A DNA stretch of 64,000 nt from Alistipes sp. (GTDB lineage Bacteria; Bacteroidota; Bacteroidia; Bacteroidales; Rikenellaceae): NCBI GenBank assembly GCA_017463615.1, contig JAFTOU010000059.1, positions 1 to 64,000 of the forward strand, written 5' to 3'. The position numbers and the translations under genes were made by a program. The notes under the pieces were generated by a model. It saw only the letters and a program-made list of their open reading frames with translations, searched no databases and was not told the origin of the DNA. Each line of letters begins with the position of its first letter. The first letter of the stretch is position 1. This document shows positions 9,952 to 61,614 of this stretch, piece by piece.

Positions 9952-10077
9952 TTTTGTTGTGATAAGGCAGCATTAGCTGCACATCCCTCAAATCCCCGAA
10001 TGGGTAGTACGCTTTAGTACAACCCATCCGGGGATTTCTCACGATGCACACCTACTACCGCCTTCTGACAACAAAAT
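9952..10077 (+). repeat. Palindromic 3'-end element, copy 1
   Basis: Begins on the base after the stop TAG at 9949-9951. Terminal inverted arms are TTTTGTTGT and ACAACAAAA. The inner stem CCCCGAATGGGT pairs with ACCCATCCGGGG around the conserved apex GTACGCTTTAGTAC. Five other copies are at 10088, 32576, 40499, 58740 and 61488. Confidence 0.85.
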
Positions 10078-10087
10078 GGGTTGTGCT

Positions 10088-10205
10088 ATTTTAGTGTAGT
10101 TGCGGCATATCGCGTAAAAAGCCCAGCGATGGATAGTACTTAGGTTGTACAGCCATTGCTGGGCTTTTAGGGATGTGTCGCAAATGCGCCACTATCACTA
10201 TAAAT
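10088..10205 (-). repeat. Palindromic 3'-end element, copy 2 (minus orientation)
   Basis: Read on the minus strand it has the family order: GTGATAGTGGCGCA arm, CACATCCCT, inner stem AGCCCAGCAATGG, apex GTACAACCTAAGTAC, complementary stem, terminal arm. In this orientation it begins right after the U-tract of the SRP RNA gene, so like the other copies it lies just 3' of the gene it shares a strand with. The apex loop departs from the consensus. Confidence 0.8.
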
Positions 10206-10211
10206 AAAAAA

Positions 10212-10308
10212 GGGTAAGCTACTTATATCGCACCGCTACAACCGCATACCCTTGCTCAATTCCTTGCCTGGGGGAGTTCTGCAGGAGCTGGTCGTATAAG
10301 ACTTACCC
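10212..10308 (-). ncRNA. ffs: Signal recognition particle RNA (4.5S-type)
   Basis: On the minus strand this 97-nt segment begins GGGTAAG and ends CTTACCC, so the ends pair. It then runs into CTTTTTTATT, a terminator. The centre holds CCCCCAGG followed by GGAA and AGCAAGGG, the asymmetric and symmetric loops and tetraloop region of SRP domain IV that bind Ffh. The size fits the short SRP RNAs of Bacteroidota. A consensus promoter (TTTG, 20 bases, TACTTTTG) lies just upstream. The assignment rests on motif and fold by eye; a covariance-model search would settle it. Confidence 0.85.
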
Positions 10309-10313
10309 GAGTG

Positions 10314-10345
10314 CAAAAGTAGAACTTTTTTTGTATCTTTGCAAA
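10314..10345 (-). promoter_or_regulatory. SRP RNA promoter (TTTG-20-TACTTTTG)
   Basis: On the minus strand TTTG (complement of 10342-10345) and TACTTTTG (complement of 10314-10321) are 20 bases apart, the spacing expected for a Bacteroidota -33/-7 promoter. The RNA start follows 5 bases later. The site overlaps the divergent mltG promoter at 10334-10341. Confidence 0.75.
10334..10341 (+). promoter_or_regulatory. mltG -7 box (TATCTTTG)
   Basis: TATCTTTG lies 13 bases before the ATG at 10355. It lies within the segment that would be coding if the upstream in-frame TTG at 10331 were used, which argues for the ATG. It overlaps the -33 region of the divergent SRP RNA promoter. Confidence 0.65.
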
Positions 10346-10354
10346 AAATTGGCT

Positions 10355-11386
10355 ATGAAAGTAAATTTTCTTAAAAAAATATTTGTTTGCGGCATTGCTT
10401 TGGGTGGCTTTGTCGCTGTGGCTCTGATAGTTGCGTACAATAGCTTCTATGGCAAGGCGGTTGAGGATAATTACACTATTTATATCACGCCCCAGAGCAA
10501 TTACGACGATTTTGCAGCTGAAATTAAGGGTCAGCTCTCCTCGTCGCTTAAATCTAAGGCCTTTGATATCTACGCTTCGCGTCTAAATCTTAGCGAGCGA
10601 CTCAAGGCGGGACACTATGTTGTTGGTCAGGGTGCGAGTGTGATAAAGGTGGTGCGTATGTTTGCTCTTGGCGAGCAGACCCCTGTAGATGTTGTTGTTG
10701 GAGGTGCGCGTACCCTTCCGCAGTTGGCGGGGCGACTCTCTAAGCAGATTATGGCAGACTCGGCTACCCTACTCAAGGCTATGCAGGATAAGCAGCTGCG
10801 TGCATCGCTGGGTTACAAGCGCGACTCACTCATCGCTATGTTTGTCCCTAACACCTACCAGCTCTACTGGACCGTATCGCCTAAGAGTCTGCTGGAGCGT
10901 ATGAAGCGCGAGTCGGATGCCTTCTGGAACGACTCTCGTCGTGCAAAGCTCAAGGCTGCGGGGCTTACGCAATATCAGGCTATGACGCTGGCATCTATAG
11001 TCTACGAGGAGACCAAGAATCGTGGCGAGATGCCGCGCATTGCGGGCGTATATATCAACCGTCTGCGCAAGGGTATTCCGTTGCAGGCCTGCCCTACGGT
11101 GAAGTATGCTATGGGTGATTTTTCGCTTACGCGCATACTCTACAAGCATCTGCGATATGACTCCCCTTTCAATACCTATCGCAATGCGGGTCTGCCACCA
11201 GTACCTATCTGCATACCGAGCATTGCAGCCATTGACGCGGTGCTGAACTACGAGAAGAGCGACTACCTATACTTCTGTGCTAAGCCAGAGTTTGATGGCA
11301 CGCACAACTTCGCCCGTACGCTGAGCGAGCACAACGCCAACTCGCGAAAGTATAACGAGGCGCTGAAGAAGTTGAAAAGCAAGTAG
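10355..11386 (+). CDS. mltG: Endolytic transglycosylase MltG (YceG-like)
   Basis: The 343-residue protein has one N-terminal membrane helix (about 8-28) and a YceG-like periplasmic domain. The signature GLTQYQAMTLASIVYEET contains the catalytic glutamate of the ASIVxxET motif (residues 213-220), followed by RIAGVYINRL and the substrate motif GIPLQACPTVKYA. MltG cuts nascent peptidoglycan strands near the membrane and is thought to set glycan chain length. The ATG at 10355 is preferred over a TTG at 10331 because that TTG lies inside the promoter. The gene appears monocistronic and ends at a bidirectional terminator. Confidence 0.93.
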   Translation: MKVNFLKKIFVCGIALGGFVAVALIVAYNSFYGKAVEDNYTIYITPQSNYDDFAAEIKGQLSSSLKSKAFDIYASRLNLSERLKAGHYVVGQGASVIKVVRMFALGEQTPVDVVVGGARTLPQLAGRLSKQIMADSATLLKAMQDKQLRASLGYKRDSLIAMFVPNTYQLYWTVSPKSLLERMKRESDAFWNDSRRAKLKAAGLTQYQAMTLASIVYEETKNRGEMPRIAGVYINRLRKGIPLQACPTVKYAMGDFSLTRILYKHLRYDSPFNTYRNAGLPPVPICIPSIAAIDAVLNYEKSDYLYFCAKPEFDGTHNFARTLSEHNANSRKYNEALKKLKSK

Positions 11387-11391
11387 AAGAA

Positions 11392-11416
11392 AAAACCTCC
11401 CAAATCGGGAGGTTTT
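11392..11416. terminator. Bidirectional terminator between convergent genes
   Basis: A 10-bp stem AAAACCTCCC/GGGAGGTTTT with a 5-base loop has a T-rich run on each strand. It lies between mltG (plus) and the DUF4293 gene (minus) and can end both. Confidence 0.85.
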
Positions 11417-11419
11417 CTT

Positions 11420-11893
11420 TTATCTTATTCTATCAATGGAGCGGACAAGCAGCTCGTCGCGCAGGATGGCTCGCATAGCAAGCACCGTGAAGATGACCGA
11501 GATTATCGGCATAAGGACTGGGAAGCGGAAGACCACATTTGCCCAAGTGATGTCAAAGTCGGCGAAGATATTTGTGCATACAGCGTATGTGAAGGCTGCT
11601 GTGAGTAGCAACGAGCCGATAAGCAGCACGCACAGCACACCACAGAGGCGAATCTGCAGCGGGCGATTCTTATATAGGAAGATGGTCACAAATGGCAGTG
11701 CGGTAGACAGAGCCAGTATTGCGCCCAGCCAAGCCACAGTGTGTGATAGAACGCCGTCAGCATCCGAAATAGCAAAAGCCGAGAGGGTTACCTGATGTCC
11801 GTCTACACCGATGTAAACCAGTGAGCAGCAGAGCGTTACAACCATAAGTAGTGTAACAATCATTAGGTAGAAGGTCTGTATTCGTTGAATCAT
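11420..11893 (-). CDS. DUF4293 family membrane protein
   Basis: This 157-residue protein has about four predicted membrane helices, starting with MIQRIQTFYLMIVTLLMVVTL; the MIQRIQT start is typical of DUF4293 proteins in Bacteroidota. The function is unknown. Its start overlaps the stop of the upstream glycosyltransferase gene by 4 bases (ATGA-type), so the two are translationally coupled in a three-gene minus-strand operon with a DUF4199 protein. Confidence 0.75.
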   Translation of the reverse strand: MIQRIQTFYLMIVTLLMVVTLCCSLVYIGVDGHQVTLSAFAISDADGVLSHTVAWLGAILALSTALPFVTIFLYKNRPLQIRLCGVLCVLLIGSLLLTAAFTYAVCTNIFADFDITWANVVFRFPVLMPIISVIFTVLAMRAILRDELLVRSIDRIR

Positions 11894-12846
11894 AATCGCT
11901 TGTCTATTAAGTACTTATTTCTGTCGCTTGAGTTTCTGTTTATCAGCTCACCCAAGAAGCCTGCGAGGAAGAGCTGCACGCCGAGGATGATTGTCAGTAT
12001 AGCCAAGTAGAAGAGAGGCTGGTCGGTTACGGCACGCAGGGGCAGGTCCATAACCTGCTTATAAATCTTACTGCCGATAACCCAGCAGGTGGTAAAGCCT
12101 CCGATAAGGAACATCAGCGTACCCAATCCGCCGAAGAAGTACATCGGCGAGCGACCGAAGCGCGACATAAAGGTTACGGAGATAAGGTCCAAATAGCCCT
12201 TTATCATACGCTCCATACCGAACTTTGAGACGCCATACTTGCGTGCTTGGTGGTGTACCTCCTTCTCGCCAATGCGCTTAAAACCTGCATAGCGGGCAAG
12301 AATAGGGATGTAGCGGTGCATCTCACCATAGACCTCAATAGACTTTACGACACTCTTGCGGTAGCACTTGAGTCCGCAGTTGAAGTCGTGGAGCTTAATG
12401 CCCGAGACGGTACGGGCTGTCCAGTTGAAGAACTTGCTCGGCAGGCGCTTGCCTATAGGGTCGTAACGCTTGCGCTTCCAGCCTGAGACAAGGTCGTAGC
12501 CCTGCTCCAGCACCATACGGCGCATCTCTGGTATCTCGTCCGGAGAGTCCTGCAAATCGGCATCCATAGTGAATACCACCTCGCCCTGAGCAGCCTCAAA
12601 GCCGCAATAGAGGGCGGCACTCTTGCCGTAGTTGCGCATAAAGTGGATAGCCTTGATGCGCTCGCCATACTGCTGCTTAAGCGACTCTACAACATCCCAC
12701 GAGCCATCATCAGAGCCGTCGTCAATCATCACAACCTCGTACGAGAGCGACTCAGCCTTGCATACGCGGTCAATCCACTGCATCAGCTCGGGCAGGGACT
12801 CACGCTCGTTATAGAGGGGTACTACAACAGAAACATCTAAAGCCAT
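11890..12846 (-). CDS. Family 2 glycosyltransferase, DPM1/GtrB-like, membrane-anchored
   Basis: The 318-residue protein has a GT-A domain: SVVVPLYNERESLPEL at the start, the nucleotide-binding MIDDGSDDGS, the DxD-type DADLQDSP motif (about 95-102), and two C-terminal membrane helices (about 230-255 and 270-295). This architecture belongs to polyprenyl-phosphate glycosyltransferases (bactoprenol glucosyl/mannosyl transferases), which load a sugar on a lipid carrier for later transfer outside the cytoplasm. The sugar cannot be read from the sequence. It lies 2 bases downstream of the DUF4199 gene and overlaps the DUF4293 gene, an arrangement common in Bacteroidota. Confidence 0.88.
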   Translation of the reverse strand: MALDVSVVVPLYNERESLPELMQWIDRVCKAESLSYEVVMIDDGSDDGSWDVVESLKQQYGERIKAIHFMRNYGKSAALYCGFEAAQGEVVFTMDADLQDSPDEIPEMRRMVLEQGYDLVSGWKRKRYDPIGKRLPSKFFNWTARTVSGIKLHDFNCGLKCYRKSVVKSIEVYGEMHRYIPILARYAGFKRIGEKEVHHQARKYGVSKFGMERMIKGYLDLISVTFMSRFGRSPMYFFGGLGTLMFLIGGFTTCWVIGSKIYKQVMDLPLRAVTDQPLFYLAILTIILGVQLFLAGFLGELINRNSSDRNKYLIDKRL

Positions 12847-12848
12847 TG

Positions 12849-13439
12849 TTACTCGTTGTTATTTGTGTCAAATAGGTTTGCGTCCTTCTTAACCACGCCA
12901 GCGATGATAAGCGCTACAATCATACCCCATACAGCATAGCTCCATACAGAGGAGAATATGGTGGCGAAGATTGAAGGCTCAGGCTGGGCTGCCATCTGTG
13001 CGAAGAGCTGCTTGTAGGTGCCCATCATTGCAGAGGTCTCGGGGTTGGACTCAAGGATGCCCTTTACAGAGCTAATCATAGCCTCGGTGTAGGCCTTGTG
13101 GCCGATGACAAGGTTGTGCAGGATGTAGCGACCCAAGCCGACAATAACGCCTGCAAGTGCCGAGATAGATGTTACATAGCTCCAGCCAGCGCCGTAGCTG
13201 AACATCTTAACATCGCTCTGCAGTGCCATAACCTCTACAGAGAAACTCTTGGCGAAGCGATAGAGCATCCAGACAAAGAGTACGGCAGAGAACAGCATCT
13301 CAATGCACATAACCGAGTACCAAGTGGTAGTGCCGCCATAGACTACAGCGCACTGCTCAAAGATGTGTGAACAGAGCATAATAAAGCCAAAAATGGCACC
13401 CCTGGTCATCACGCTATTCAAAAATAGATTCTGTTTCAT
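12849..13439 (-). CDS. DUF4199 family membrane protein
   Basis: This 196-residue protein has about four hydrophobic helices and the N-terminal pattern typical of DUF4199 (TRGAIFGFIMLCSHIFEQ). Its molecular function is unknown. It is the first gene of the operon DUF4199-GT2-DUF4293, with 2 bases to the glycosyltransferase. A TATCTTTG promoter box lies 28 bases upstream. A role in assembling or regulating the glycosyltransferase is only suggested by the conserved neighbourhood. Confidence 0.75.
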   Translation of the reverse strand: MKQNLFLNSVMTRGAIFGFIMLCSHIFEQCAVVYGGTTTWYSVMCIEMLFSAVLFVWMLYRFAKSFSVEVMALQSDVKMFSYGAGWSYVTSISALAGVIVGLGRYILHNLVIGHKAYTEAMISSVKGILESNPETSAMMGTYKQLFAQMAAQPEPSIFATIFSSVWSYAVWGMIVALIIAGVVKKDANLFDTNNNE

Positions 13440-13467
13440 AGAATGTTTGTTCTATATGTTTAATGCA

Positions 13468-13475
13468 CAAAGATA
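13468..13475 (-). promoter_or_regulatory. -7 box (TATCTTTG) of the DUF4199 operon
   Basis: The minus-strand TATCTTTG is 28 bases before the ATG at 13439, the best consensus match in this divergent intergenic region. Confidence 0.6.
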
Positions 13476-13580
13476 GTAAAAAAGTGGGAAATAGACTCCG
13501 TCGTGCATCTTTTGAGAGATAAAATTGATAAAAATGTATATGATTTGCAGCCCTAAATATAAAAATGTCAGATTTTTTGT

Positions 13581-13588
13581 TATATTTG
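13581..13588 (+). promoter_or_regulatory. -7 box (TATATTTG) of the barrel-potABCD operon
   Basis: TATATTTGC lies 32 bases before the ATG at 13621. No clear -33 TTTG is seen at 19-21 bases. No other promoter is visible before potD, so the whole 5-kb set is probably one transcript. Confidence 0.6.
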
Positions 13589-13620
13589 CACCCTGAACCA
13601 TCCTTTATTATTTATGGTAG

Positions 13621-14688
13621 ATGAGAAAAATATTTGTTCTGGCAGTAGCTGCGCTAAGCTACTTTTGTACCTACTCGCAAGAGGCTAAGGCATCAGACAA
13701 TGTTCCAACGCTGATAATCTCGCCTCGATTTGAAGTGAACCCTTACATCCGAACAGGCAGTGAGGGATATACTGGCGTGGATTTCGGCACATCTTCCCTA
13801 TACACACTCTTTGAAGGCTCAGTGGGCGAACATTTCAGCTACTCAATGAGCAATCACTGGCTAAGTACAGATCCTAAGTCGCTCTATCAGAATGCGTTTC
13901 GTTCTGACGATGTGGACTTTATAGACTGGCTCACGCTGAGCTACAATGTAGGACAATTCACATTCACACTCGGTAAGGATATGCTTGCCATAGGCGGCTA
14001 CGAGCTGGACCCTATGGATGTGGATCAGCATCCGACACTCTGCTCTACATTCTGGCATAACTGCGCGATATATCAGTGGTCTGCGCGCGTGGAGTATATG
14101 ACCCCTGACGAGGCGTCGTCTGTGGCTTTCCAGTTCGGTACATCCCCATTTGGCGAATATCCATTCCGTAGTAAATTGTTCTCCTACTCGCTTATCTGGT
14201 ATGGCGAGTATGGCTGCTTTGCCCCTATATGGTCGGCAAATATGGTTGAGTACGACCGTGGCGTATTTGTAAAGATGGCGTCGCTGGGCAATGGCTTCTA
14301 CTTTGGCGATGTTGCTATTGAGGCGGATGTGATGTACAAGCATCTGAACTATGATGGTCACAACCACGAGCTGTCGGCTGTATGCAAGGTGGGTTATACC
14401 TTTGCTGACAAGGTGGAGGTATTTGCAAAGGGCGGCTATGAGTACCGCTCAGGCATTGACATCTTTGGATATGATGCGGAGGACGAGTGGAGCTTCATCC
14501 CGACAGATGCCTCGGCAAAGGGCTACGCATTCTATGGCGGTGGTGTGAACTACTACCCACTCCGAAACAGCAAGGACCTGCGTCTGCACGCAGTAGTTGG
14601 CGCAAATAACTATGCCAAGAGCGTGGCTCTGAGCATTGGTGCGACATATCACTTTAACTTAACAGAAACTATTGGCAAACGAAGATAA
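13621..14688 (+). CDS. Predicted outer-membrane beta-barrel (porin-like) protein
   Basis: The 355-residue protein has a signal peptide (cleavage near CTYSQ, residue about 20) and many amphipathic beta-strands with aromatic girdles, ending in [10 protein letters not shown] before a short tail. Glycine- and aromatic-rich strands such as [21 protein letters not shown] resemble phosphate-selective or general porins of Bacteroidota. It lies one base before potA, so it is transcriptionally and probably translationally linked to a polyamine ABC importer. That suggests it passes polyamines across the outer membrane (inference). No close family can be named from the sequence alone. Confidence 0.7.
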
Positions 14689-14689
14689 A

Positions 14690-16075: not shown

Positions 16076-16078
16076 CAG

Positions 16079-18974: not shown

Positions 18975-19013
18975 CATTTAACTATTGGCTATTAGCCATT
19001 AGCTGTTAGCTTT

Positions 19014-19050
19014 TTAGGGGTGTCGCTACGCGACAGTGTTGAGGGGTGCA
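19014..19050 (+). repeat. Half-hairpin module (GTCGCTACGCGAC)
   Basis: AGGGGTGTCGCTACGCGACA followed by GTGTTGAGGGGTGCA matches the reverse complement of 58908-58945 and one arm of the ~105-bp hairpin at 19633-19730. It contains the short palindrome GTCGCTACGCGAC. Confidence 0.7.
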
Positions 19051-19111
19051 TACTGTACCCAGAGTTATTAGAGGTAGCTATGTTTGTTAATGCACTACAG
19101 ACTGCACCGTC

Positions 19112-19232
19112 GTTTGTCACGTGTCACGCTGTCACACGCGTGGGGTGTTGTCACATTTGTCACATTTATGTCACTTGTCACACCTGTTTCACACGCCTGT
19201 GACAGTGTGACATGTGACATTTGGCTATTAGC
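19112..19232 (+). repeat. GTCACA array, left arm of a ~120-bp inverted repeat
   Basis: About a dozen GTCACA/TGTGAC units irregularly spaced. The reverse complement matches 19753-19876 almost throughout, including GCCAAATGTCACATGTCACA and the GTGAAACAGGTGTGACAAGT stretch, with scattered mismatches. A related array in the same orientation is at 40803-40890. Confidence 0.8.
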
Positions 19233-19239
19233 TTTTTTT

Positions 19240-19359
19240 CATTAAGGGTCATTAAAGAGTATTAAAGGTTACTAATGGTCGCTGGCGCGACGCTACGCAG
19301 TACAGTAAATGGTTGCGCTACCCTTAGTAGCCCTTAATAATCCTTAATAACCTTTAATG
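19240..19359. repeat. CATTAA/TTAATG palindrome
   Basis: Three CATTAA/ATTAAAG-type units at 19240-19278 are matched in reverse complement by units at 19321-19359 (CCCTTAGTAG to CCTTTAATG). This makes an imperfect stem of nearly 40 bp around a centre rich in CGC/GCG. Confidence 0.7.
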
Positions 19360-19457
19360 TTGCGCATCCCGCTTGCACCGAACAAACAAAGCAAGGGTGC
19401 ACACGCCCGTGTTCGTTCGTTCGGTTTGCTATGCTATGTGGGTACTAACGCCAGGTG

Positions 19458-19544
19458 TACGCCTAATAAATAATTATATTCGGAGATTTATCTATATATA
19501 TAATTATTTGTACTGATTTATCAGTATGTAAGCACCGCAGGTAG
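19458..19544 (+). repeat. 87-bp AT-rich module, copy 1
   Basis: Runs from TACGCCTAATAAATAATTAT to GTAAGCACCGCAGGTAG and contains the palindrome TACTGATTTATCAGTA. The reverse complement is nearly identical to 41066-41152, with differences only around CGGAG/AGATA. GCACCGCAGGTAG repeats once more just downstream. Confidence 0.85.
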
Positions 19545-19604
19545 ATACAGCACCGCAGGTAGTTACTTGTCGTAGAGATACTCACGACCGCGTAGATACT
19601 TTGA

Positions 19605-19765
19605 TAGCTATTAGCTATTGGCCATTAGCTATATTAAGGTATCGCTACGCGATAGTGTTTAGGGCTGCAGTTGGTACTCTCAGTTGCCCCTTGCACCCTA
19701 TAAACACTGTCGCGCAGCGACACCTCTGAAAAGCTAATGGCTAAAAGCCAACGGCTAATAGCCAA
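19605..19765. repeat. ~105-bp hairpin module with AGCTATTAGCC borders, copy 1
   Basis: The arms AGGTATCGCTACGCGATAGT (19637 on) and ACTGTCGCGCAGCGACACCT (to about 19726) pair as a long imperfect stem. Each arm also contains its own small palindrome. A copy about 93% identical by eye lies at 40890-41055 in the same orientation. Confidence 0.8.
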
Positions 19766-19876
19766 ATGTCACATGTCACACTGTCACAGGCGTATGAAAC
19801 AGGTGTGACAAGTGACATAGATGTGACAGATGTGACAAACTCACACGCTTGTGACAATGTGACAAGTGACAAACGG
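19753..19876 (-). repeat. GTCACA array, right arm of the ~120-bp inverted repeat
   Basis: Inverted counterpart of 19112-19232. The two arms enclose about 520 bp of non-coding sequence, giving the geometry of a small non-autonomous element, although no transposase or target-site duplication was recognised. Confidence 0.75.
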
Positions 19877-19953
19877 TAGCGCAGCGGGTAAGCACAGACA
19901 AAAAAATGGCACTGGAGGTTTTCCAATGCCACTTTATAGGGTTGTGCGGGGCA

Positions 19954-32395: not shown

Positions 32396-32575
32396 ATGGG
32401 AACATTACTTTATCTGTTGGGTACCGTTCTGGGTATCTATGCCGTTTATGAGATCTTTACCAAGAAGCCAGGTACAGAGCTTCTTCCAAAGCTCCTGTGG
32501 TCAGTAGTAGTACTCTGCACAAGCTGGATTGGTATTGCGTTGTATTATTTCTATCTTCGTGACAAACTGAAGTAG
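32396..32575 (+). CDS. 59-residue two-helix membrane protein
   Basis: ATG at 32396, TAG at 32573-32575. The protein has a hydrophobic helix (LLYLLGTVLGIYAVYEIF), a short loop (TKKPGTELLPK) and a second helix (WSVVVLCTSWIGIALYYFY) ending in RDKLK. The loop and helix pattern resembles small PLDc_N-like membrane proteins common in Bacteroidota. It lies 19 bases after truA on the same strand and its stop touches a palindromic element. Function is unknown, but coding is well supported by composition and helix pattern. Confidence 0.8.
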   Translation: MGTLLYLLGTVLGIYAVYEIFTKKPGTELLPKLLWSVVVLCTSWIGIALYYFYLRDKLK

Positions 32576-32703
32576 ATTTTGTTGTGATAGTGGCGCATTT
32601 GCGGCACATCCCTTAAAAATCAGCCGCGGCTGTACGCTTTAGTACTATCCGCGGCTAATTTTTTGCACGATGCCCCGCAAATGCGCCACTCTGACAACAA
32701 AAT
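32576..32703 (+). repeat. Palindromic 3'-end element, copy 3
   Basis: Starts on the base after the stop at 32575. This is the most regular copy: outer arms ATTTTGTTGT/ACAACAAAAT, a 15-bp perfect stem GTGGCGCATTTGCGG/CCGCAAATGCGCCAC, and inner stem AGCCGCGG/CCGCGGCT around GTACGCTTTAGTAC. A T6 run follows the inner stem, as in a terminator. Confidence 0.9.
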
Positions 32704-39158: not shown

Positions 39159-40499
39159 ATGACAATTAAGCAAAGAATGGATCAGGCGCTCGAAATGGCG
39201 GGTCAGACTAAGGGTGCTGAGATCTCTCAGGGTGCGTTAAAGAGTACTCCAGGTTTGTTCAAGAAGTTCTTCCCAGGTCGCAAGGCTGTGGTTATTACCG
39301 ACCACTTCGTATGGACTGCTGCTGGTGAGGCTGTGTACAACATTATGAACGCTGAGGGCGTTGAGTGCGAGAAGTTCGTTATTCCTGACAAGAGCTTCCA
39401 TGCAGAGTGGAAGTATGTTGAGATGATTCTCGATGTGCTCAAGCAGTACAATGCTATCGCTATCGCTGTAGGCTCAGGCGTTATCAACGATGTTTGTAAG
39501 CTCGCTTCTCACCTGCTTGACCAGCGCTACATCTGTATCGCATCTGCTGCATCTGCTGACGGCTACTCTGCTTCAGGTTCGGCTATCGTTAAGGATGGCG
39601 CAAAGCAGACCTTCACCTGCCCTGCTCCGCTGGTAATTATCGGTGACTCTGATGTGTTGTGCAACGCTCCTGCACGCCTTACTACTGCTGGTTATGCAGA
39701 CCTTGCTGCTAAGATTCCTGCAGGTGGTGAGTGGATGATTGCCGATCTGTTCGGTACTGAGCCTATCAACCCACCAGCTTGGTCTGTAATTCAGGATATG
39801 CTCCCAGAGGTTCTTGCTGACGCTCAGGGTATTGCAGATCGTACTCCTAAGGCTGTTGAGAATATCTTTGCTGGTCTTACACTCTCAGGTGTTGCTATGC
39901 AGATTGCAAACGATACTCGCCCACTCTCTTGTGCAGAGCACCTTTTCAGCCACTACCTTGATATGACTCACCACACATACGAGGATCGTATGGTTCTCCA
40001 CGGCTTCCAGGTTTCTGTAGGTACTGTTACTATGTGTGCATTCTTTGACGAGCTGCTCAAGATGGACCTTACGAAGCTGGATGTAGACGCTTGCGTTGCC
40101 GCTTGGCCTACAAAGGAGCAGGAGGTTGCTCGTGCAACTGAGCTGTTCACTGGCTTCCCAGTTCCAGAGCTCGGTCCTACCGAGATTGCAAAGAAGTGGC
40201 AGAGCCCAGAGGAGGTACGCGAGCAGCTTAACCGCGTGAAGGCTACATGGCCAGAGTTCCGCGAGAAGCTCCGCAATCAGGTTTACTCATTTGAGAAGAT
40301 GCGCGACCTCTTCGTAACCGCAGGCGCTCCAGTTGCTCCAGAGCATATTGGCGTTTCACGCGCTCAGTGGAAGAATATGACCAACTTCGTTCAGCTTATG
40401 CGCTGGAGAGTAAACCTCTTCGACCTTGCTAAGCGTGCGCAGATTTTTGATACGTTGGTTGGTAATGTATTTGGTAAGGGCGGCGCTCTTGAGATATAA
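39159..40499 (+). CDS. sn-glycerol-1-phosphate dehydrogenase (AraM/EgsA-type)
   Basis: This 446-residue iron-alcohol-dehydrogenase-fold enzyme shows AVGSGVINDVCK for nucleotide binding, ASADGYSASGS in the active site, and metal ligands in SCAEHLFSH and MVLHGFQVSVGT. The family reduces dihydroxyacetone phosphate to glycerol-1-phosphate, the archaeal-type lipid backbone. In bacteria AraM feeds heptaprenylglyceryl phosphate synthesis. It stands alone with its own promoter, and a palindromic repeat begins at its stop codon. No PcrB/GGGP synthase is in the window. Confusion with glycerol dehydrogenase is possible but the active-site block favours G1P dehydrogenase. Confidence 0.85.
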   Translation: MTIKQRMDQALEMAGQTKGAEISQGALKSTPGLFKKFFPGRKAVVITDHFVWTAAGEAVYNIMNAEGVECEKFVIPDKSFHAEWKYVEMILDVLKQYNAIAIAVGSGVINDVCKLASHLLDQRYICIASAASADGYSASGSAIVKDGAKQTFTCPAPLVIIGDSDVLCNAPARLTTAGYADLAAKIPAGGEWMIADLFGTEPINPPAWSVIQDMLPEVLADAQGIADRTPKAVENIFAGLTLSGVAMQIANDTRPLSCAEHLFSHYLDMTHHTYEDRMVLHGFQVSVGTVTMCAFFDELLKMDLTKLDVDACVAAWPTKEQEVARATELFTGFPVPELGPTEIAKKWQSPEEVREQLNRVKATWPEFREKLRNQVYSFEKMRDLFVTAGAPVAPEHIGVSRAQWKNMTNFVQLMRWRVNLFDLAKRAQIFDTLVGNVFGKGGALEI

Positions 40500-40625
40500 T
40501 TTGTTGTGATAGCGCGGCATTAGTCGCACATCCCTAAAAGCCCGACAATGGCTGTACGCTTTAGTACTATCCATCGTCGGGCTTTCTCACGATGTACGCC
40601 TACTACCGCACTCTGACAACAAATT
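40499..40625 (+). repeat. Palindromic 3'-end element, copy 4
   Basis: Its first base is the last base of the stop codon at 40497-40499. The inner stem AAAGCCCGACAATGG pairs with CCATCGTCGGGCTTT except for one A-C mismatch, around GTACGCTTTAGTAC. Degenerate fragments of the 3' arm follow at about 40650 and 40664-40696 (CTGACGAT, TGACGATAAAAT). Confidence 0.85.
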
Positions 40626-40704
40626 GGGCAGTGTGTTATCTACCGCGTTCTGACGATTAGATAGAACTCGCCACTGTACTATGACGATAAAATTGGACGG
40701 TGAG

Positions 40705-40805: not shown

Positions 40806-40889
40806 GTTGTGTCACATCTGTCACATTTTTGTCACTGTCACATCGTTTTCACACGCCTGTGACAATGTGACATGTGACATTTGGCTGTT

Positions 40890-41055
40890 GGCCGTTGGCC
40901 GTTAGCCATTAGCCATTAGCTATTGGCTATATTAAGGTATCGCTACGCGATAGTGTTTAGGGCTGCAGTTGGTACTCTCAGTTGCCTCTTACACCCTATA
41001 AACACTGTCGGCTTGTCGACACCTCTAAAAAGCTAATAGCTAACAGCCAATAGCT
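40890..41055. repeat. ~105-bp hairpin module with AGCTATTAGCC borders, copy 2
   Basis: The core at 40928-41030 is nearly identical to 19633-19730. The changes concentrate at the tip of one arm (GTCGCGCAGCGAC in copy 1, GTCGGCTTGTCGAC here), which stays self-complementary. Confidence 0.8.
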
Positions 41056-41065
41056 AATTAAGTAA

Positions 41066-41152
41066 CTACCTGCGGTGCTTACATACTGATAAATCAGTAC
41101 AAATAATTATATATATAGATAAATATCTGAATATAATTATTTATTAGGCGTA
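41066..41152 (-). repeat. 87-bp AT-rich module, copy 2 (inverted)
   Basis: Reverse complement of 19458-19544 with only a handful of differences. The neighbouring ~105-bp hairpin has the same orientation in both islands, so the modules have been shuffled independently. Confidence 0.85.
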
Positions 41153-41274: not shown

Positions 41275-41400
41275 ACAAGCTGAGCGAGCGAACAACCGAA
41301 CACGAACGAACAGGGGCGTGTTCGTTCGTTCGTTCGTGTTCGGTTTTGTTCGGTTTTGTTCGGGTATGTTCAGTTATGTTCGGGAATATTCGGTTTATTC
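41275..41400. repeat. GTTCG array, second block
   Basis: CGAAC units on the left (GCGAACAACCGAACACGAAC) and GTTCG units on the right (GTTCGTTCGTTCGTGTTCGG, then decaying GTTCGGG/GTTCAG units spaced about 10 bases) form a large imperfect palindrome about the centre near 41322. Confidence 0.75.
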
Positions 41401-47201: not shown

Positions 47202-47202
47202 T

Positions 47203-50147: not shown

Positions 50148-50166
50148 AAACAAAATTTTATAGCGT

Positions 50167-50628: not shown

Positions 50629-50663
50629 ACCAAATAAACCTAAACCAACCAATCAATTAACCT

Positions 50664-53282: not shown

Positions 53283-53312
53283 TTATTGTAAAACATTTAA
53301 TACTAAAATTTT

Positions 53313-54290: not shown

Positions 54291-54294
54291 TAAA

Positions 54295-55131: not shown

Positions 55132-55150
55132 AGTAAATCTGTGGATAAAG

Positions 55151-55183
55151 GCGCTCTCAAAGTTATTTTGAGGGCGCTTTTTT
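55151..55183 (+). terminator. Rho-independent terminator
   Basis: The stem GCGCTCTCAAA/TTTTGAGGGCGC with one mispair and a short loop is followed by six T. It lies 19 bases after the stop at 55131 and separates the floA cluster from the next promoter. Confidence 0.85.
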
Positions 55184-55269
55184 ATTGTGTGTATACTAAA
55201 ATAGTATAAAATTCGTTGGTAGGTAGTGGAAATGGTTGCTAAAGATTTTCAAGTTTGCAACTTTTTTGG

Positions 55270-55277
55270 TACATTTG
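55270..55277 (+). promoter_or_regulatory. -7 box (TACATTTG)
   Basis: TACATTTGC lies 40 bases before the ATG at 55318. The preceding A/T-rich segment holds a TTTG, but only 12 bases away. Confidence 0.55.
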
Positions 55278-55317
55278 CACCAATTATTGTGTATTGACGA
55301 AAATTGTAGAATACTAT

Positions 55318-56841: not shown

Positions 56842-56848
56842 ACAAGCT

Positions 56849-57355
56849 ATGATTCTCAGACTTAGAATGCTCAGTGACGAGAACGACAACTTCGTTCGTG
56901 ATTTTGAGGTTTCGCACGAGATGAACCTCCTTGAGCTGCACAACTTTATTATTGAGTCAATAGAGTATGACGACTGTATGGCTTCGTTCTACTCTGCGGA
57001 CGAGCAGTGGAATCCCCTGCAGGAGTTCTCGCTTATGGATATGGGCGACGAGCAGTTTGAGGGCGCTCCAATCGCTATGGAGAAGGTCTCCCTTGCAGAG
57101 CTTGTTGTTGGGGAGTGCAACCGCCTGATTTATCAGTTTGATATGATTGCCGACCGCGCCTTCTACCTGGAGGTTGTAAGTGCTGGTCAGCCAAATCCAG
57201 AGCTGAGCTACCCTCGCGTGTCGTTTGAGAATGCTCGCGTGCCAGACCAGTACGATCCCGATGCCGTACCTGCGGACGATGGCTCTATCTTTGACGAGAT
57301 GATGGACGAGTTTGGGGAGTTTGACGGCGACGATAGCTATGACGATGAGTACTAA
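56849..57355 (+). CDS. Plasmid pRiA4b ORF-3-like protein
   Basis: The 168-residue cytoplasmic protein matches the pRiA4b ORF-3/IS1096 passenger family by its N-terminal pattern (LRLRMLSD, LHNFIIESIEYDD, MASFYSAD) and a strongly acidic C-terminus (DGDDSYDDEY). Function is unknown; the family is chromosomal in most Bacteroidota and its name does not imply an insertion sequence here. Its end overlaps miaA by 11 bases. Confidence 0.78.
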   Translation: MILRLRMLSDENDNFVRDFEVSHEMNLLELHNFIIESIEYDDCMASFYSADEQWNPLQEFSLMDMGDEQFEGAPIAMEKVSLAELVVGECNRLIYQFDMIADRAFYLEVVSAGQPNPELSYPRVSFENARVPDQYDPDAVPADDGSIFDEMMDEFGEFDGDDSYDDEY

Positions 57356-58256
57356 ACGCCGACTGATTGTCGTTGTTGGACCTACAGCTTCGGGCAAGAC
57401 TGATCTTAGTATCGCTCTTGCCCGACATTATAATGCCCCTGTACTCTCTACCGACTCACGCCAGGTCTATAAGGGGCTTGTTATCGGTACGGCATACCCT
57501 TCGGAGGAGCAGCTGCAAGCTGTTGAGCACCACTTTATTGGGGAGAAGGACCTAACGCAGGAGTTTAACTGCGGGGAGTACGAAAAGCAGGCTTTAGAGC
57601 GACTCAATATGCTCTTTGATAGCCACGATACGGTTGTCGCTGTAGGTGGTTCAGGACTCTATATTCGCGCGCTGTGCGAGGGTATGGATGACCTTCCCGA
57701 GGCTGATGCGCCACTGCGCGAGATGCTCGCAGAGCGTCTTGAGAGCGAGGGTGTTGCGGCTCTTGCCGAGCAACTGCGCGAGCTTGACCCTGAGTATTAT
57801 GAGGTCGTAGACCGTAATAACCCTGCGCGTGTGATGCGTGCGCTGGAGGTGTGTATTAGTAGTGGTCGTAAGTATTCAGAACTGCGTGGTGGAGAGCGTA
57901 AAGAGCGTGATTTTCAGATAGTTAAGGTCGGGGTTGATATGCCCCGCGAGGTGCTTTATGATAGGATAAATCGCCGCGTGGATATGATGGTCGCAGCTGG
58001 TCTTGAGGCTGAGGCGCGGGCAGTGCTACCCTATCGCTACTGCAACTCACTGCGCACGGTGGGCTATGCCGAGATGTTTGACTACTTTGATGGCAAGATT
58101 AGCTTTGTAGAGGCTGTGGAGCTGATTAAGCGCAACTCTCGCCGCTACGCAAAGCGACAGATGACATGGTTTAGGCGCGATAGTCAGATTGCGTGGTTCA
58201 AAGCCTCTGAGTATGAGCAGATTGTAAAATATATTGACGCCCAATTTGGAGAATAG
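57345..58256 (+). CDS. miaA: tRNA dimethylallyltransferase MiaA
   Basis: This 303-residue enzyme adds a dimethylallyl group to A37 of tRNAs reading UNN codons. The P-loop GPTASGKT is at 12-19 and the catalytic STDSRQVYKGL block follows. GGSGLYIRAL and the C-terminal YAKRQMTWFRRD are family blocks. An ATG six bases upstream (57339) is also possible. It overlaps the upstream gene, and a tRNA-Leu gene with A37 follows 40 bases downstream. Confidence 0.95.
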   Translation: MSTKRRLIVVVGPTASGKTDLSIALARHYNAPVLSTDSRQVYKGLVIGTAYPSEEQLQAVEHHFIGEKDLTQEFNCGEYEKQALERLNMLFDSHDTVVAVGGSGLYIRALCEGMDDLPEADAPLREMLAERLESEGVAALAEQLRELDPEYYEVVDRNNPARVMRALEVCISSGRKYSELRGGERKERDFQIVKVGVDMPREVLYDRINRRVDMMVAAGLEAEARAVLPYRYCNSLRTVGYAEMFDYFDGKISFVEAVELIKRNSRRYAKRQMTWFRRDSQIAWFKASEYEQIVKYIDAQFGE

Positions 58257-58295
58257 GATATAAATTTGTAAATTTGCATCGCAAATAGAACGGTT

Positions 58296-58381
58296 GCTCG
58301 AATGGTGGAATAGGTAGACACGCCGGACTTAAAATCCTGTGGACAGAAATGTCCGTGCCGGTTCGATCCCGGCTTCGAGTA
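58296..58381 (+). tRNA. tRNA-Leu (anticodon TAA)
   Basis: The acceptor stem GCTCGAA pairs with TTCGAGT (one G-T pair). The D arm TGGTGGAATAGGTAGACA, anticodon loop CTTAAAA, a long class II variable arm (GGACAGAAATGTCC) and T arm GCCGGTTCGATCCCGGC are clear. Discriminator A is at 58381. Two TAAATTTG boxes lie just upstream (58261-58276). The 3' end is duplicated 321 bases downstream. Confidence 0.95.
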
Positions 58382-58383
58382 CA

Positions 58384-58425
58384 GCGGAGGGTGGTACAAT
58401 GGTATTACCCTCCGTTGTATTTTAT
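58384..58425 (+). terminator. Hairpin/terminator behind tRNA-Leu
   Basis: CGGAGGGT and ACCCTCCG form a stem around GGTACAATGGTATT, followed by TTGTATTTTAT. It is part of the 64-bp segment repeated at 58683-58746. Confidence 0.7.
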
Positions 58426-58682
58426 GTAGTTAGGTTGTTGAGTGCCGAGTTGGCGAGGGGCGTTGCCCCACTGTCAATGTGATTGGTCGCCTATGCGTGC
58501 AAGCCCGCAGTCGCCAATCACATAGCCAGCCGCCTTTGGCATTCTCGCCAACTGGAGCTATCCTCAAAGCGTGATGCTCACTAAATGGCGGTTGCGCGGA
58601 TAAAATTGTGTTTATAGCTTGCCCCGTTGGGTCTGCGCTTACATATGTATCCGCGCGAGTTTGCGACTTTCAGTCGCTGCAC
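58426..58682. other. 257-bp insert between two copies of the tRNA-Leu 3' end
   Basis: No gene is visible. It contains nested inverted repeats: AGTTGGCGAG (58448-58457) with CTCGCCAACT (58544-58553), and GTGATTGG (58479-58486) with CCAATCAC (58514-58521). The flanking direct repeats are 58362-58425 and 58683-58746. The layout is that of a short element or remnant inserted at the tRNA 3' end. Confidence 0.65.
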
Positions 58683-58746
58683 TTCGATCCCGGCTTCGAG
58701 TACAGCGGAGGGTGGTACAATGGTATTACCCTCCGTTGTATTTTAT
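58683..58746 (+). repeat. Duplicate of tRNA-Leu 3' end plus terminator (att-like direct repeat)
   Basis: 64 bp identical to 58362-58425: the T-loop TTCGATCCCGG, the acceptor strand TTCGAGTA and the whole terminator hairpin. The upstream parts of the tRNA are absent, so no functional tRNA is encoded. Its last seven bases are also the first bases of palindromic element copy 5. Confidence 0.85.
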
Positions 58747-58869
58747 CGTGATAGTGGCGCATTTGCGGCACATCCCTTAAAAAACAGTCTCGGCTGTACT
58801 CTCTTAGTACTATCCGAGACTGATTTTTTTTCACGATGCTCCGCAACTACACCACTCTGACGATAAAAT
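58740..58869 (+). repeat. Palindromic 3'-end element, copy 5
   Basis: Arms ATTTTATCGTGATAGTGG and CCACTCTGACGATAAAAT. The inner stem CAGTCTCGG pairs with CCGAGACTG, and a T8 run follows. The apex is GTACTCTCTTAGTAC, a variant of the consensus. It follows the duplicated tRNA-Leu terminator without a gap. Confidence 0.85.
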
Positions 58870-58904
58870 AGGTCGGTGCTTATAGCGACAAAATGGGTTA
58901 CTAT

Positions 58905-58985
58905 TTGCACCCCTCAACACTATCGCCGTAGGCGATACCTCTGAAAAGCTAATAGCTAACAGCTAAAAGCCAATAGCTAAAGGTT
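58905..58985 (-). repeat. Half-hairpin module with AGCTAATAGCT repeats
   Basis: TGCACCCCTCAACACTATCG, then the palindrome ATCGCCGTAGGCGAT and an AGCTAATAGCTAACAGCTAA tail. It is the reverse complement of the left end of repeat island 1 (about 18985-19050), with compensating differences inside the small palindrome. Confidence 0.75.
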
Positions 58986-59030
58986 GATAGTTTTTTCTCC
59001 CCGATTTCTTCGTTTTTAAGAATTTTGTAC

Positions 59031-59038
59031 TATCTTTG
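59031..59038 (+). promoter_or_regulatory. -7 box (TATCTTTG) of rho
   Basis: TATCTTTGC lies 70 bases before the rho ATG, leaving a leader of about 60 nt in which no clear attenuator was recognised. Confidence 0.6.
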
Positions 59039-59108
59039 CACTATCAATTAGCCAGTCGTCCGATTGGTTGCAAATCACGTTAATAAATATACCTAATATA
59101 ATCTTAGT

Positions 59109-60704
59109 ATGGAGGATTTAGCTACTTTGGAGAGCAAGACGCTCAAGGAGCTGCGCGAGATTGCCAAGGCGTTTGGTATCGCGAGTGACAAGTTATCAAA
59201 GCGTACAATTATAAAGTTGATTGCTGGTGGTACAATTACCCCAGCTGAGGAGGAGAGTGCTCCTGCAGAGGAGTCGCCAGCTCAGGAGCAGCCTGCGGCT
59301 CCGGCGAAGCGTCGTGGTCGCAAGCCGCGTGTGGAGAAGGTGGAGGTTGTAGAGGTTGCAGCAGAGTCAGTTGCGGAGTCTGCTCCAGCGCAGGATGCAG
59401 AGCCGTCGGAGGCTGAGTCTCAGGGTGAGGTTCGCAAGGGCGACAAGCGTCGTGGCCGTCCTCGCAAGGCGGAGCGTATTGAGTCTAAATCAGAACCCAA
59501 GGCTGAGGAGCAAGTCTCTGAGAGTGAGGATGTTGAGTCTGTAGAGGTGGAGCCAATATCTGAGCCAGAGATTACCAAGGACGACTTTACGGCCGAGGTT
59601 ATTGGCGAGGGTGTGCTGGAGATTATTCCAGAGGGTTACGGTTTCCTCCGTTCTGCCGACTATAACTATCTCAACTCGCCAGATGATATCTATGTTTCGC
59701 CGTCGCAGATTAAGCTCTTTGGTCTCAAGGCGGGCGATACTGTTACGGGTGTTATCCGTCCACCGAAGGAGGGCGAGAAGTACTTTCCGCTTGTTCAGGT
59801 GCTGGAGATTAACGGCTTAGAGCCTAATGCTGTGCGCGACCGTGTGCAGTTTGAGTATATGACCCCGCTCTTCCCTAACGAGAAGTTCAACCTTACAGGC
59901 AATGGCCACAACGACCTCTCAAACCGCGTTGTGGACCTATTCTCCCCTATCGGTAAGGGTCAGCGTGCGCTGATTGTTGCACAGCCTAAGACGGGTAAAA
60001 CTATGTTGCTGCAGAGCATTGCAAATGCTATTGCCGACAACCACCCAGAGGTCTATATGATTGTTCTGCTTATTGACGAGCGCCCTGAGGAGGTTACCGA
60101 GATGGCTCGCCATGTGAAGGCGGAGGTTGTTGCATCTACATTTGACGAGCAGGCTACACGCCATGTGAAGGTTGCTGAGATGGTGCTTGAGAAGGCGAAG
60201 CGTATGGTTGAGTGCGGACACGATGTGGTTATCCTGCTGGACTCTATCACTCGCCTTGCGCGTGCCTACAACTCCGTGCAGCCAGCTTCTGGTAAGGTGC
60301 TCTCGGGAGGTGTGGATGCAAATGCGCTCCATAAGCCTAAGCGTTTCTTCGGCGCAGCACGAAATACCGAGGAGAAGGGCTCGCTCACCATCATCGCTAC
60401 AGCCCTGATTGATACTGGTTCTAAGATGGACGAGGTTATCTTTGAGGAGTTCAAGGGTACTGGTAATATGGAGCTTCAGCTTGACCGCCGTCTGGCAAAT
60501 AAGCGCATCTACCCTGCTGTGGATGTTATCGCTTCGGGTACTCGTCGTGAGGATATGCTCCTGAGCCGCGAGGTTATGCAGCGCACTTGGATTTTGCGCA
60601 AGTACCTCTCCGATATGACTACTGTGGAGGCTATGGAGTTTCTGCAGAAGCAGATGGGTATGACCACCAGCAACGAGGAGTTCCTCGCAACGATGAACCA
60701 GTAG
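59109..60704 (+). CDS. rho: Transcription termination factor Rho with large disordered insertion
   Basis: The 531-residue hexameric RNA helicase ends transcription. It has an N-terminal SAP-like Rho_N helical bundle (about 1-45), a low-complexity insertion of about 110 residues (about 50-160) and a cold-shock-like RNA-binding domain ([20 protein letters not shown], about 165-240). In the RecA-like ATPase core, Walker A PKTGKT ends at T298 and [15 protein letters not shown] is Walker B. The insertion is rich in Glu, Pro and Ala with two basic RRGRKPR/RRGRPRK motifs. Insertions of this kind are known in Bacteroidota, and in Bacteroides thetaiotaomicron one is reported to promote phase separation. 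The gene has its own promoter. Confidence 0.95.
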
Positions 60705-60706
60705 CT

Positions 60707-61483
60707 ATGAGACGCGCCTACCTGCTACTTGTAGCCCTGACCGCAACCCTGCAGTGCTTCGGCTGGGGACAGAAGGGGCACGATGCTGTTGCGTATATCG
60801 CAGAGTGTAATCTTGAACCTGCTGTCTATCAGCGCGTTACTAAACTGCTCGGGGGGCATTCGCTGGTCTACTATGCCAACTGGATGGATAACGCCAGCCA
60901 TACGGATGCCTATCGCTACACCAAGACATGGCACTACGCCAATGTAGACGAGGGTTACACCTACCAAACTATGCCTCGCAACCCAAAGGGCGATGTGGTT
61001 ACGGCTATTGATGGCATTGTCGCAAAGCTCAAGAGTGGTCGCCTCTCCGAGGCGGAGCAGAGCCTGCAGCTCAAGTTTTTGATACACCTTGTGGGCGATA
61101 TCCACGCCCCTATGCACGCAGGGCGACTGACCGATTTGGGTGGTAATAAGCTCTATGTCAAGTACTTTGACCGAAAGATTAAGCTCCATGAACTGTGGGA
61201 TGTAGACCTTATTGAGGATTGCCACCGCTGGAGCTATACCGAGTGGCAACAACAACTTGATAAACACTGCCCTGCCGAGCGCAAGGCTCAGATTGCTCAG
61301 GGTACACCTGCCGACTGGCTCGCCGAGAGCCACGCTTTAGCAAAGGATATCTACATCGCCTCGCCCAAGCGCGCAAAGCTCTCCTACTACTACCTCAACT
61401 ACTACACCCCGCGCATTGAGGAGCGAATTCTTGCAGGAGGTTTGAGATTGGCAGCGATATTGAATGAAATCTACGCATTTTAG
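60707..61483 (+). CDS. Secreted S1/P1 family nuclease
   Basis: The 258-residue protein has a signal peptide that leaves Trp20 as the mature N-terminus (CFG/WGQKGH), the residue that coordinates zinc in S1/P1 nucleases. Further ligands are in GQKGHDAVAYIAE, NWMDNASHTD, TWHYAN and HLVGDIHAPMH, with HELWDVDLIE downstream. The trinuclear zinc site cuts single-stranded DNA and RNA and removes 3' phosphates. It follows rho by 2 bases but is functionally closer to the extracellular nuclease locus at 267-9951. A palindromic element starts 4 bases after the stop. Confidence 0.92.
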   Translation: MRRAYLLLVALTATLQCFGWGQKGHDAVAYIAECNLEPAVYQRVTKLLGGHSLVYYANWMDNASHTDAYRYTKTWHYANVDEGYTYQTMPRNPKGDVVTAIDGIVAKLKSGRLSEAEQSLQLKFLIHLVGDIHAPMHAGRLTDLGGNKLYVKYFDRKIKLHELWDVDLIEDCHRWSYTEWQQQLDKHCPAERKAQIAQGTPADWLAESHALAKDIYIASPKRAKLSYYYLNYYTPRIEERILAGGLRLAAILNEIYAF

Positions 61484-61487
61484 CGTG

Positions 61488-61614
61488 ATTTTGCCGTGAT
61501 AGCACGCCACCTACGGCACATCCCTTAATAGCCTGAATGGGTAGTACGCTTTAGTACAACCCATCCAGGCTATTTTCACGATGCACCGTATCTGGCGCAC
61601 TCTGACGACAAAAT
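61488..61614 (+). repeat. Palindromic 3'-end element, copy 6
   Basis: Arms ATTTTGCCGTGATAGCACGCC and GGCGCACTCTGACGACAAAAT (shortened here by one base at most per arm in pairing). Inner stem TAGCCTGAATGGGT with ACCCATCCAGGCTA and one A-C mismatch, apex GTACGCTTTAGTAC. Confidence 0.85.

What the first reader, a model, noticed from the sequence alone, without database searches (positions are those of the whole stretch)
9952..61614. A dispersed ~125-bp structured repeat that always sits directly behind a gene and in that gene's orientation
Six copies (9952, 10088 minus, 32576, 40499, 58740, 61488) share arms of the type ATTTTGTTGTGATAG and CTCTGACAACAAAAT. Four begin within 0-4 bases of a stop codon: copies 1 and 3 on the next base, copy 4 on the last base of the stop, copy 6 after 4 bases. 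The other two follow RNA-gene terminators: copy 2 on the minus strand behind SRP RNA, copy 5 behind the duplicated tRNA-Leu end. Orientation agrees with the upstream gene in all six cases. This suggests either a mobile palindrome that targets gene 3' ends, or a portable 3'-end processing/termination module. REP elements moved by RAYT transposases are the nearest known concept; I know of no described family with these features.
Basis: partly seen in the sequence, partly recalled or inferred. Interest (0 to 1): 0.82.

Follow-up and report, generated by a model that had tools for sequence, protein, structure and literature searches.

The report
Replication-oriented hairpins behind stop codons
In one genus of gut bacteria, short hairpin-forming DNA elements sit right behind the stop codons of many genes, nearly all pointing the same way along the chromosome, and their shape is preserved on the DNA strand opposite the gene; they look mobile, but no known moving enzyme was found.

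Summary
A covariance model finds 138 copies in the window's own genome and matches in 93 of 174 genomes of the genus, but in 0 of 147 others searched in the order. Listed named hits are Alistipes/Rikenellaceae MAGs. Copies are about 130-nt imperfect hairpins; 111 of 146 begin within 15 nt of a stop codon, in the gene's orientation.

Three things were missed. (1) 138 of 146 copies lie on the G-rich, probably leading, strand; plain terminators on the largest contig show no such bias. (2) The strand opposite the gene folds better in 142 of 143 copies, and G-T pairs far outnumber A-C there; gene ends without the element do not show this. So the preserved fold is not the mRNA's. (3) One gene end followed through relatives shows insertion between stop codon and native terminator, and different elements at the same spot.

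No Y1/RAYT transposase, and no integron integrase over cut-off, in 25 genus genomes. Best reading: a mobile single-stranded-DNA hairpin that works like attC sites or REPs but is neither, with a terminator-like inner stem and an unidentified mover.

The parts
9952..10077 (+). copy 1, directly after TAG (9949-9951) of a DUF5689 protein gene
10081..10206 (-). copy 2, at the 3' end of the SRP RNA gene on the minus strand; the one window copy on the other strand
32576..32703 (+). copy 3, directly after TAG (32573-32575) of a 62-aa gene with a PLDc_N match; absent behind the same gene in G044, G005, G045
40498..40625 (+). copy 4, its outer arm overlapping TAA (40497-40499) of an Fe-ADH_2 gene; site history
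40637..40662 (+). left-over 3' half of an older element of the G043/G044 type, behind copy 4
   Evidence: by eye
58740..58869 (+). copy 5, behind the duplicated tRNA-Leu 3' end
61477..61488 (+). 5' arm of an older element (ATTTTAGCGTGA) that holds the TAG stop of an S1/P1 nuclease gene
61489..61614 (+). copy 6, nested directly after the GTGA of the older arm

Best explanation
A genus-restricted family of mobile, non-coding DNA hairpins of about 130 nt plus a short 3' tail. Shown by sequence: copies are gained, lost and replaced by other subfamilies directly behind stop codons, in the gene's orientation, about ten times more often behind genes on the G-rich strand than on the other; the strand complementary to the gene is the one whose fold is preserved. 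Inferred: that strand folds as single-stranded DNA and is the substrate of an unidentified recombination or transposition activity, as the bottom strand of integron attC sites is. [quoted passage not shown] The inner A-run/stem/T-run could stand in for the native terminator, which would explain why copies placed between stop codon and terminator are kept while the old terminator is lost. DNA rather than RNA, the enzyme, and the terminator role are inferences.
For: Strand of folding: bottom more stable in 142 of 143 copies with DNA and 141 of 143 with RNA parameters, G-T pairs 661 bottom against 74 top; G-T against A-C cells 224:16, 158:7, 113:9 in three species; 28 of 30 copies in four further species, whereas in 130 nt behind genes without the element the bottom strand is the better in only 20 of 46 and 22 of 50. 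Polarity: 138 of 146 copies on the G-rich strand; stop codons with a copy 104 of 906 against 7 of 691 genes; two strand blocks around the single 3.79-Mb contig of G066. Position: gap 0 or 1 in 69 of 111; 3' end at an opposite-strand stop in 0 of 68. Mobility: empty and filled sites and replacement. No visible antisense promoter: 7 of 134 with TAnnTTTG against 167 of 3000 random and 59 of 117 upstream of genes (motif recalled).
Against: No enzyme identified. 8 of 146 copies lie on the other strand, and behind genes of that strand copies still follow the gene's orientation (7 genes; copy 2). One contig is a 2:2 tie (G055 C10, sampled part) and one has almost no skew (G016 C6; without it 123 of 129). 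Other repeats on C40 are polar too (12 against 1). Only one clean filled/empty pair shows the junction. The inner stem has a T-run on both strands (82 and 71 of 102, shuffled element 36, random 20), which fits a terminator as well. The folding strand as RNA from a distant antisense promoter is not excluded.
Confidence: 0.5

Rival explanations
1. Antisense structured RNA: the folded bottom strand is an RNA transcribed against the gene's 3' end, and copies are regulatory RNAs that spread.
For: G-U and G-T tolerance look alike, so searches do not tell RNA from DNA; RNA parameters give the same result.
Against: No Bacteroidetes-type promoter within about 110 nt on the antisense side: 7 of 134 with TAnnTTTG, 0 of 134 with the full motif, against 59 and 26 of 117 upstream of genes. 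Does not explain replication polarity or replacement.
Confidence: 0.15
2. A portable intrinsic terminator acting on the mRNA of the upstream gene; the strand bias reflects which genes gain from it.
For: At least 5 T in 8 behind the inner stem in 82 of 102 copies, random 20, shuffled element 36; stands where G044, G005, G045 have an ordinary terminator.
Against: Pairing is preserved on the other strand: A-C mismatches, not G-U pairs, accumulate in the mRNA strand, and ordinary gene ends do not show this. Plain terminators on C40 have no strand bias, 22 + and 19 -.
Confidence: 0.15
3. No enzyme at all: replication template switching copies hairpins between gene ends and repairs imperfect palindromes (quasipalindrome correction).
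For: Outermost pair follows the stop codon's last base in G000 (offset 2: 0.79 paired against 0.57 shuffled, 0 of 1000); 3' arm equals the reverse complement of the gene's last six bases in G044/G043; older 3' halves left behind (15 partial of 23); fork-dependent polarity.
Against: The same test is weak or null in G016. Correction should remove the TGA/TGA mismatch, which is kept in several subfamilies, and does not predict G-T on one strand only. Copies also arise where the empty relative shows no element.
Confidence: 0.15
4. REP-like element moved by a RAYT/IS200-type Y1 transposase.
For: Imperfect hairpin, no target duplication at the one clean site, replication polarity, downstream-of-gene position (PMC3733652 and PMC6006769, passages).
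Against: No PF01797 match at E 0.001 in 25 of 25 genus genomes, while 13 of 16 genomes of other families have one; no conserved GTAG/CGTC foot in the arms; length about 130 nt against 20-40 bp.
Confidence: 0.05

Closest known systems
Integron attC sites (for example the repeats of sedentary chromosomal integrons)
   Same: A long imperfect hairpin right behind a gene in its orientation; the bottom strand is the one that matters; the bottom strand on the leading-strand template, as in 25 of 30 sedentary integrons (PMC5371416, passages; PMC11023631 and PMC2727003, passages).
   Different: No integron integrase over cut-off in 25 genus genomes; arm triplets vary (TTTGTT, TTTGGC, TTTATC...) with no constant GTTRRRY/RYYYAAC box (box recalled); copies are scattered behind ordinary genes and come and go without the gene.
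REP/REPIN palindromes and RAYT transposases
   Same: High-copy palindromes mostly downstream of genes; GTAG REPs often supply a TAG stop to flanking genes (PMC3733652, passages).
   Different: No Y1 transposase in 25 genus genomes, no GTAG/CGTC foot, four times longer, strict strand polarity.
Bacterial MITEs and YPAL/ERIC-type repeats
   Same: Non-coding structured elements of about 127-168 bp with empty and filled sites, transcribed with neighbours (PMC2229807, passages).
   Different: YPAL makes duplications of 3-26 bp (same source); none is seen at the one clean site here. Strand rules relative to gene and replication.
Intrinsic terminators
   Same: Stem followed by a T-run at a gene end.
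   Different: Fold preserved on the opposite strand; strand-polar.

Membership tests
Integron attC site | integron integrase in the genome | tested here: not met
   TIGR02249: over cut-off in 1 of 41 genomes (G031, another family), 0 of 25 of the genus; below cut-off it matches in all 25, as in 14 of 14 controls, so other tyrosine recombinases are present
Integron attC site | bottom strand is the preferred folding strand | tested here: met
Integron attC site | conserved R boxes RYYYAAC / GTTRRRY (recalled) | tested here: not met
   arm sequences vary, 14 different TTTNNN types among 104 copies; judged by eye, no box scan run
Integron attC site | moves with its gene as a cassette | tested here: not met
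   gene present without or with another element in relatives
Integron attC site | recombination of the folded strand in vivo | not testable with these tools
   needs an assay
REP/RAYT | Y1 (RAYT) transposase | tested here: not met
   PF01797 in 0 of 25 genus genomes
REP/RAYT | GTAG or CGTC foot, 20-40 bp unit | tested here: not met
DDE-type MITE | target-site duplication | tested here: inconclusive
   none in the one clean filled/empty comparison (G044 and G043 against G076)
DDE-type MITE | autonomous partner with the same ends | tested here: inconclusive
   orphan halves in 784 kb point to no such unit; rest of the genomes not examined for it
Intrinsic terminator | stem plus T-run | tested here: met
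   82 of 102 sense, 71 of 102 antisense, shuffled 36, random 20; the built-in terminator scan did not list the element stems
Intrinsic terminator | fold preserved on the transcript strand | tested here: not met
Rfam RNA families | match at gathering score | tested here: not met
   window; four further loci; with lax threshold only matches far below gathering score

The most novel reading that the evidence does not exclude
A new class of single-stranded-DNA mobile hairpin: an attC-like element without integron, cassette or known recombinase, which inserts alone at the stop codons of genes co-directional with replication and replaces both its predecessors and the host's terminators, so that many gene ends of a chromosome are rebuilt by a hairpin system with an unknown enzyme.
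Probability: 0.3. Interest if true: 0.9.

Novelty: new variant of a known kind. Interest (0 to 1): 0.76.

Why it matters
I recall no described repeat family that can be read for gene end, replication direction and folding strand all at once, and the listings named none (open-access papers only). It makes testable whether the strand logic known from integrons exists outside them. Gene ends keep older 3' halves as layers, a natural record of turnover. If an enzyme exists, it places DNA at gene ends and would be of interest in its own right. It also warns against annotating 3' ends in these gut bacteria as ordinary terminators.

Tried and rejected
Tried and dropped. Y1 transposase. Reverse transcriptase: RVT_1 absent in element-rich G010, G016, G020, G021, which are only 78-87% complete, but present in the own genome. 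Integron integrase. Viral contigs: two pattern scans without a match. Box C/D or K-turn reading of UGAU/CUGA at the stem base: no three-base bulge, rejected by eye (motif recalled). Autonomous element with the same ends: none suggested by orphan halves in 784 kb. Bare trinucleotide TAA/TAG/TGA as DNA target: present 0-2 nt upstream in 99 of 147 copies, background 16%; among 12 copies of C40 and the window away from a protein stop I count by eye only 2 with it, yet nested copies sit after GTGA (one search lists 6, one of which I judge false; plus G096). Unresolved. Prevotella hit L258 is coding DNA, taken as chance. Antisense promoter test negative.

Against the reading, or weakening the counts. 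Weak model matches in G016 tandem arrays were first called on the wrong strand; the motif corrected them. Copies with a damaged half, copy 2 among them, are not counted. Stretches of G055, G016 and part of G000 were chosen from contigs with hits, so densities are biased; strand ratios should not be. G055 C10 is a 2:2 tie in the sampled part and G016 C6 has a skew of 0.0009. On C40 the skew is negative in 16 of 20 stretches, not all. In G066 local skew around one minus copy (3257 kb) is positive and several sampled skews are near zero. The stop-codon pairing test is clear in G000 but not in G016. In one search, 74 own copies were examined: 56 had no ortholog in the held part of G044, 18 had. 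The script called 1 of 18 filled; by eye at least two more are filled (copy 4; C40:278214 with a TTTAAG-type element) and several rows are uninformative. Six rows show a stop codon and then a plain hairpin with T-run. In one search the search range was -40 to +28 nt, so some of the 26 of 30 may be chance. Searches used strict filters and capped scoring, so absence there means none found at that setting.
Full report
WHAT IS THERE. The window is part of a 2.38-Mb draft genome of an unnamed species. A DNA search with copy 3 gave 45 matches in that genome. A covariance model built from 26 oriented copies gave 145 rows (150 of 785 candidates were scored, so this is a lower bound). Without five opposite-strand rows at the same places and two contig-end fragments, 138 remain. 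All six window copies are found. With the model, 93 of 174 genomes of the genus have matches, and of 148 genomes drawn across the order only the own genome.

ANATOMY. Each window copy is a single long imperfect hairpin. From outside in: arms TTTNNN/NNNAAA, complementary at all six positions in 84 of 104 copies; in G000 the outermost pair follows the last base of the stop codon (A-T or G-C), which G016 does not show clearly. Then a stem base where TGA faces TGA (T-A, G opposite G, A-T), seen by eye in the GTGATA/TCTGAC, GTGAAA/TTTGAC and GATGATTG/CACTGATC types. Then a variable middle stem, CATC/GATG, an A-run/stem/T-run, and a tip GTAC..GTAC. A further type has TTTAAG/CTTAAA at the base and lacks the mismatch. 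A tail such as GTGCGCTGATTGAGGTGG (G016) or GGTGCAAGGAGTAG (G000) follows the 3' arm of many copies. Covariation on the 26-copy alignment exceeds the shuffles.

POSITION. With genes called by a simple script of mine, in parts of four genomes (G000, G016, G055, G044; 146 copies), 111 copies lie within 15 nt of a same-strand stop, 69 of them with 0 or 1 base between stop codon and TTT. No 5'-half motif outside the listed elements lay inside a called gene in the 784 kb (three 3'-half matches did). In one search, 49 of 68 copies have their 5' end at a same-strand stop and 0 of 68 their 3' end at an opposite-strand stop, although the next gene is convergent in 33. In four more genus members 26 of 30 fetched loci have the copy at or near the stop of an open frame of at least 90 codons in the same orientation.

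REPLICATION POLARITY. In the own genome 117 of 121 copies on contigs with three or more lie on the contig's majority strand. Of 20 contigs with copies tested in G000, G055, G016 and G044, 19 have their majority on the G-rich strand and one (G055 C10) is a 2:2 tie in the sampled part; in total 138 of 146 copies, or 123 of 129 without G016 C6, whose skew is near zero. C40 is the longest: 29 of 30 copies on minus, overall GC skew -0.031 and negative in 16 of 20 stretches, while 58% of genes are on minus. Genes on the G-rich strand carry a copy at the stop in 104 of 906 cases, others in 7 of 691 (Fisher p 3.7e-19). In G066, one contig of 3,788,833 bases, the 13 model matches read in order give --- ++++++ ---- (chance of one plus block on a circle 0.0076), and sampled GC skew changes sign roughly to match, weakly in places and with one local exception. 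Plain terminators outside the element on C40 do not share the bias (22 + and 19 -). That the G-rich strand is the leading direction is established knowledge for most bacteria, not shown here.

WHICH STRAND FOLDS. As DNA, the strand complementary to the gene is the more stable in all five plus-strand window copies (copy 2 not tested there). Over 143 full-length copies it is so in 142 (DNA) or 141 (RNA parameters); with RNA parameters G-T pairs number 661 on the bottom against 74 on the top strand. In alignments by genome the bottom strand shows 224 G-T against 16 A-C cells (G000), 158:7 (G016) and 113:9 (G055), at 19-21 positions each and with no G-T fixed, so this is not one inherited accident. 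It holds in 28 of 30 copies of four further species, while behind C40 genes without the element the bottom strand is the better in only 20 of 46 and 22 of 50 cases. The fold is thus preserved on the strand opposite the mRNA. A dedicated antisense promoter is not visible (7 of 134 against 167 of 3000 random and 59 of 117 upstream of genes), which favours single-stranded DNA over RNA without proving it.

HISTORY OF ONE GENE END. For copy 4, G076 has TAA, a spacer and a plain terminator. G044 and G043 have an element between TAA and that spacer, the native terminator still present, no duplication; the end of the 3' arm is the reverse complement of the gene's last six bases and a tail of about nine bases follows. 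The own genome and G106 have other elements at the same point, with the 3' half of the G043/G044-type element left downstream. G096 has one nested after GTGA of an older arm; G180 and G005 have further ones, G092 a fragment; G143, G109 and G045 have none that I can see. Elsewhere G043 and G044, mostly 85-94% alike in long alignments, carry different elements behind the same gene. Copy 3 is absent behind the same gene in G044, G005 and G045, where an ordinary terminator follows the stop. Of 23 copies with a second 3' half within 160 nt, 15 have a partial one at 27-59 nt and 8 a whole further element or its remains at 126-150 nt.

HOW IT PROBABLY WORKS. The facts fit a hairpin moved as single-stranded DNA, with the bottom strand as substrate, inserted or retained so that this strand is not on the lagging-strand template. 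Sedentary integrons show the same arrangement of attC bottom strands (25 of 30; PMC5371416, passages); inverting one raises cassette excision and costs growth (PMC11023631, passages); strand choice by attC structure is in PMC2727003 (passages). The same logic could give the polarity here either at insertion (incorporation with the nascent lagging strand) or by loss of wrongly oriented copies; I cannot separate the two. Once between stop codon and native terminator, the inner stem could end transcription and the old terminator decay. Y1 transposases and integron integrases over cut-off were not found in 25 genus genomes, though other tyrosine recombinases are present, and reverse transcriptases not in four element-rich ones. 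So the mover is unknown, or the process is replication template switching.

NOVELTY. It resembles attC in anatomy and strand logic, and REPs and MITEs in lifestyle, and meets the tested defining features of none. Paper searches listed no description of such a family; the library holds open-access papers only and I saw listings and passages. I file it as a new variant of a known kind (dispersed structured repeats), with a real chance of being a new kind of single-strand hairpin mobility.

Noticed in passing
58362-58425 and 58683-58746: The 3' end of tRNA-Leu with its terminator is duplicated at 100% identity 321 bases apart; the upstream copy ends in TATTTTAT, the first bases of copy 5's arm. 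It looks like a small insertion or tandem duplication at a tRNA end.
   Followed up: partly
62633-62698 and 62779-62844: A second duplicated tRNA 3' end with terminator (tRNA-Gly), 94% alike, 146 bases apart.
   Followed up: no
C40 of the own genome; window 58932: Another intergenic repeat (CTCTGAAAAGC..., often behind the element) is also strand-polar on C40, 12 against 1.
   Followed up: partly
18985-19769 and 40836-41142: Two intergenic regions share several further palindromic repeats (families D3, D6, D8, D10-D12, D18); short tandem GTTCGGTTTT units lie at 41328-41392.
   Followed up: no
own genome C40:124359 and 293352; G044 C24 near 124.9 kb; G064 loci L343, L346: Hairpins of the same plan with TTTAAG/CTTAAA in place of GTGATA/TCTGAC at the stem base; the motif counts leave them out.
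   Followed up: partly
own genome C40:316861 and 388725: Read by eye, the gene's stop is the TGA of the element's own GTGATA and an out-of-frame TAA or TAG lies just before the element, as if insertion changed the protein's last residues.
   Followed up: no
G044 C13 about 61.8-62.1 kb (minus strand): An element interrupted by another repeat between its inner stem and its 3' half.
   Followed up: no
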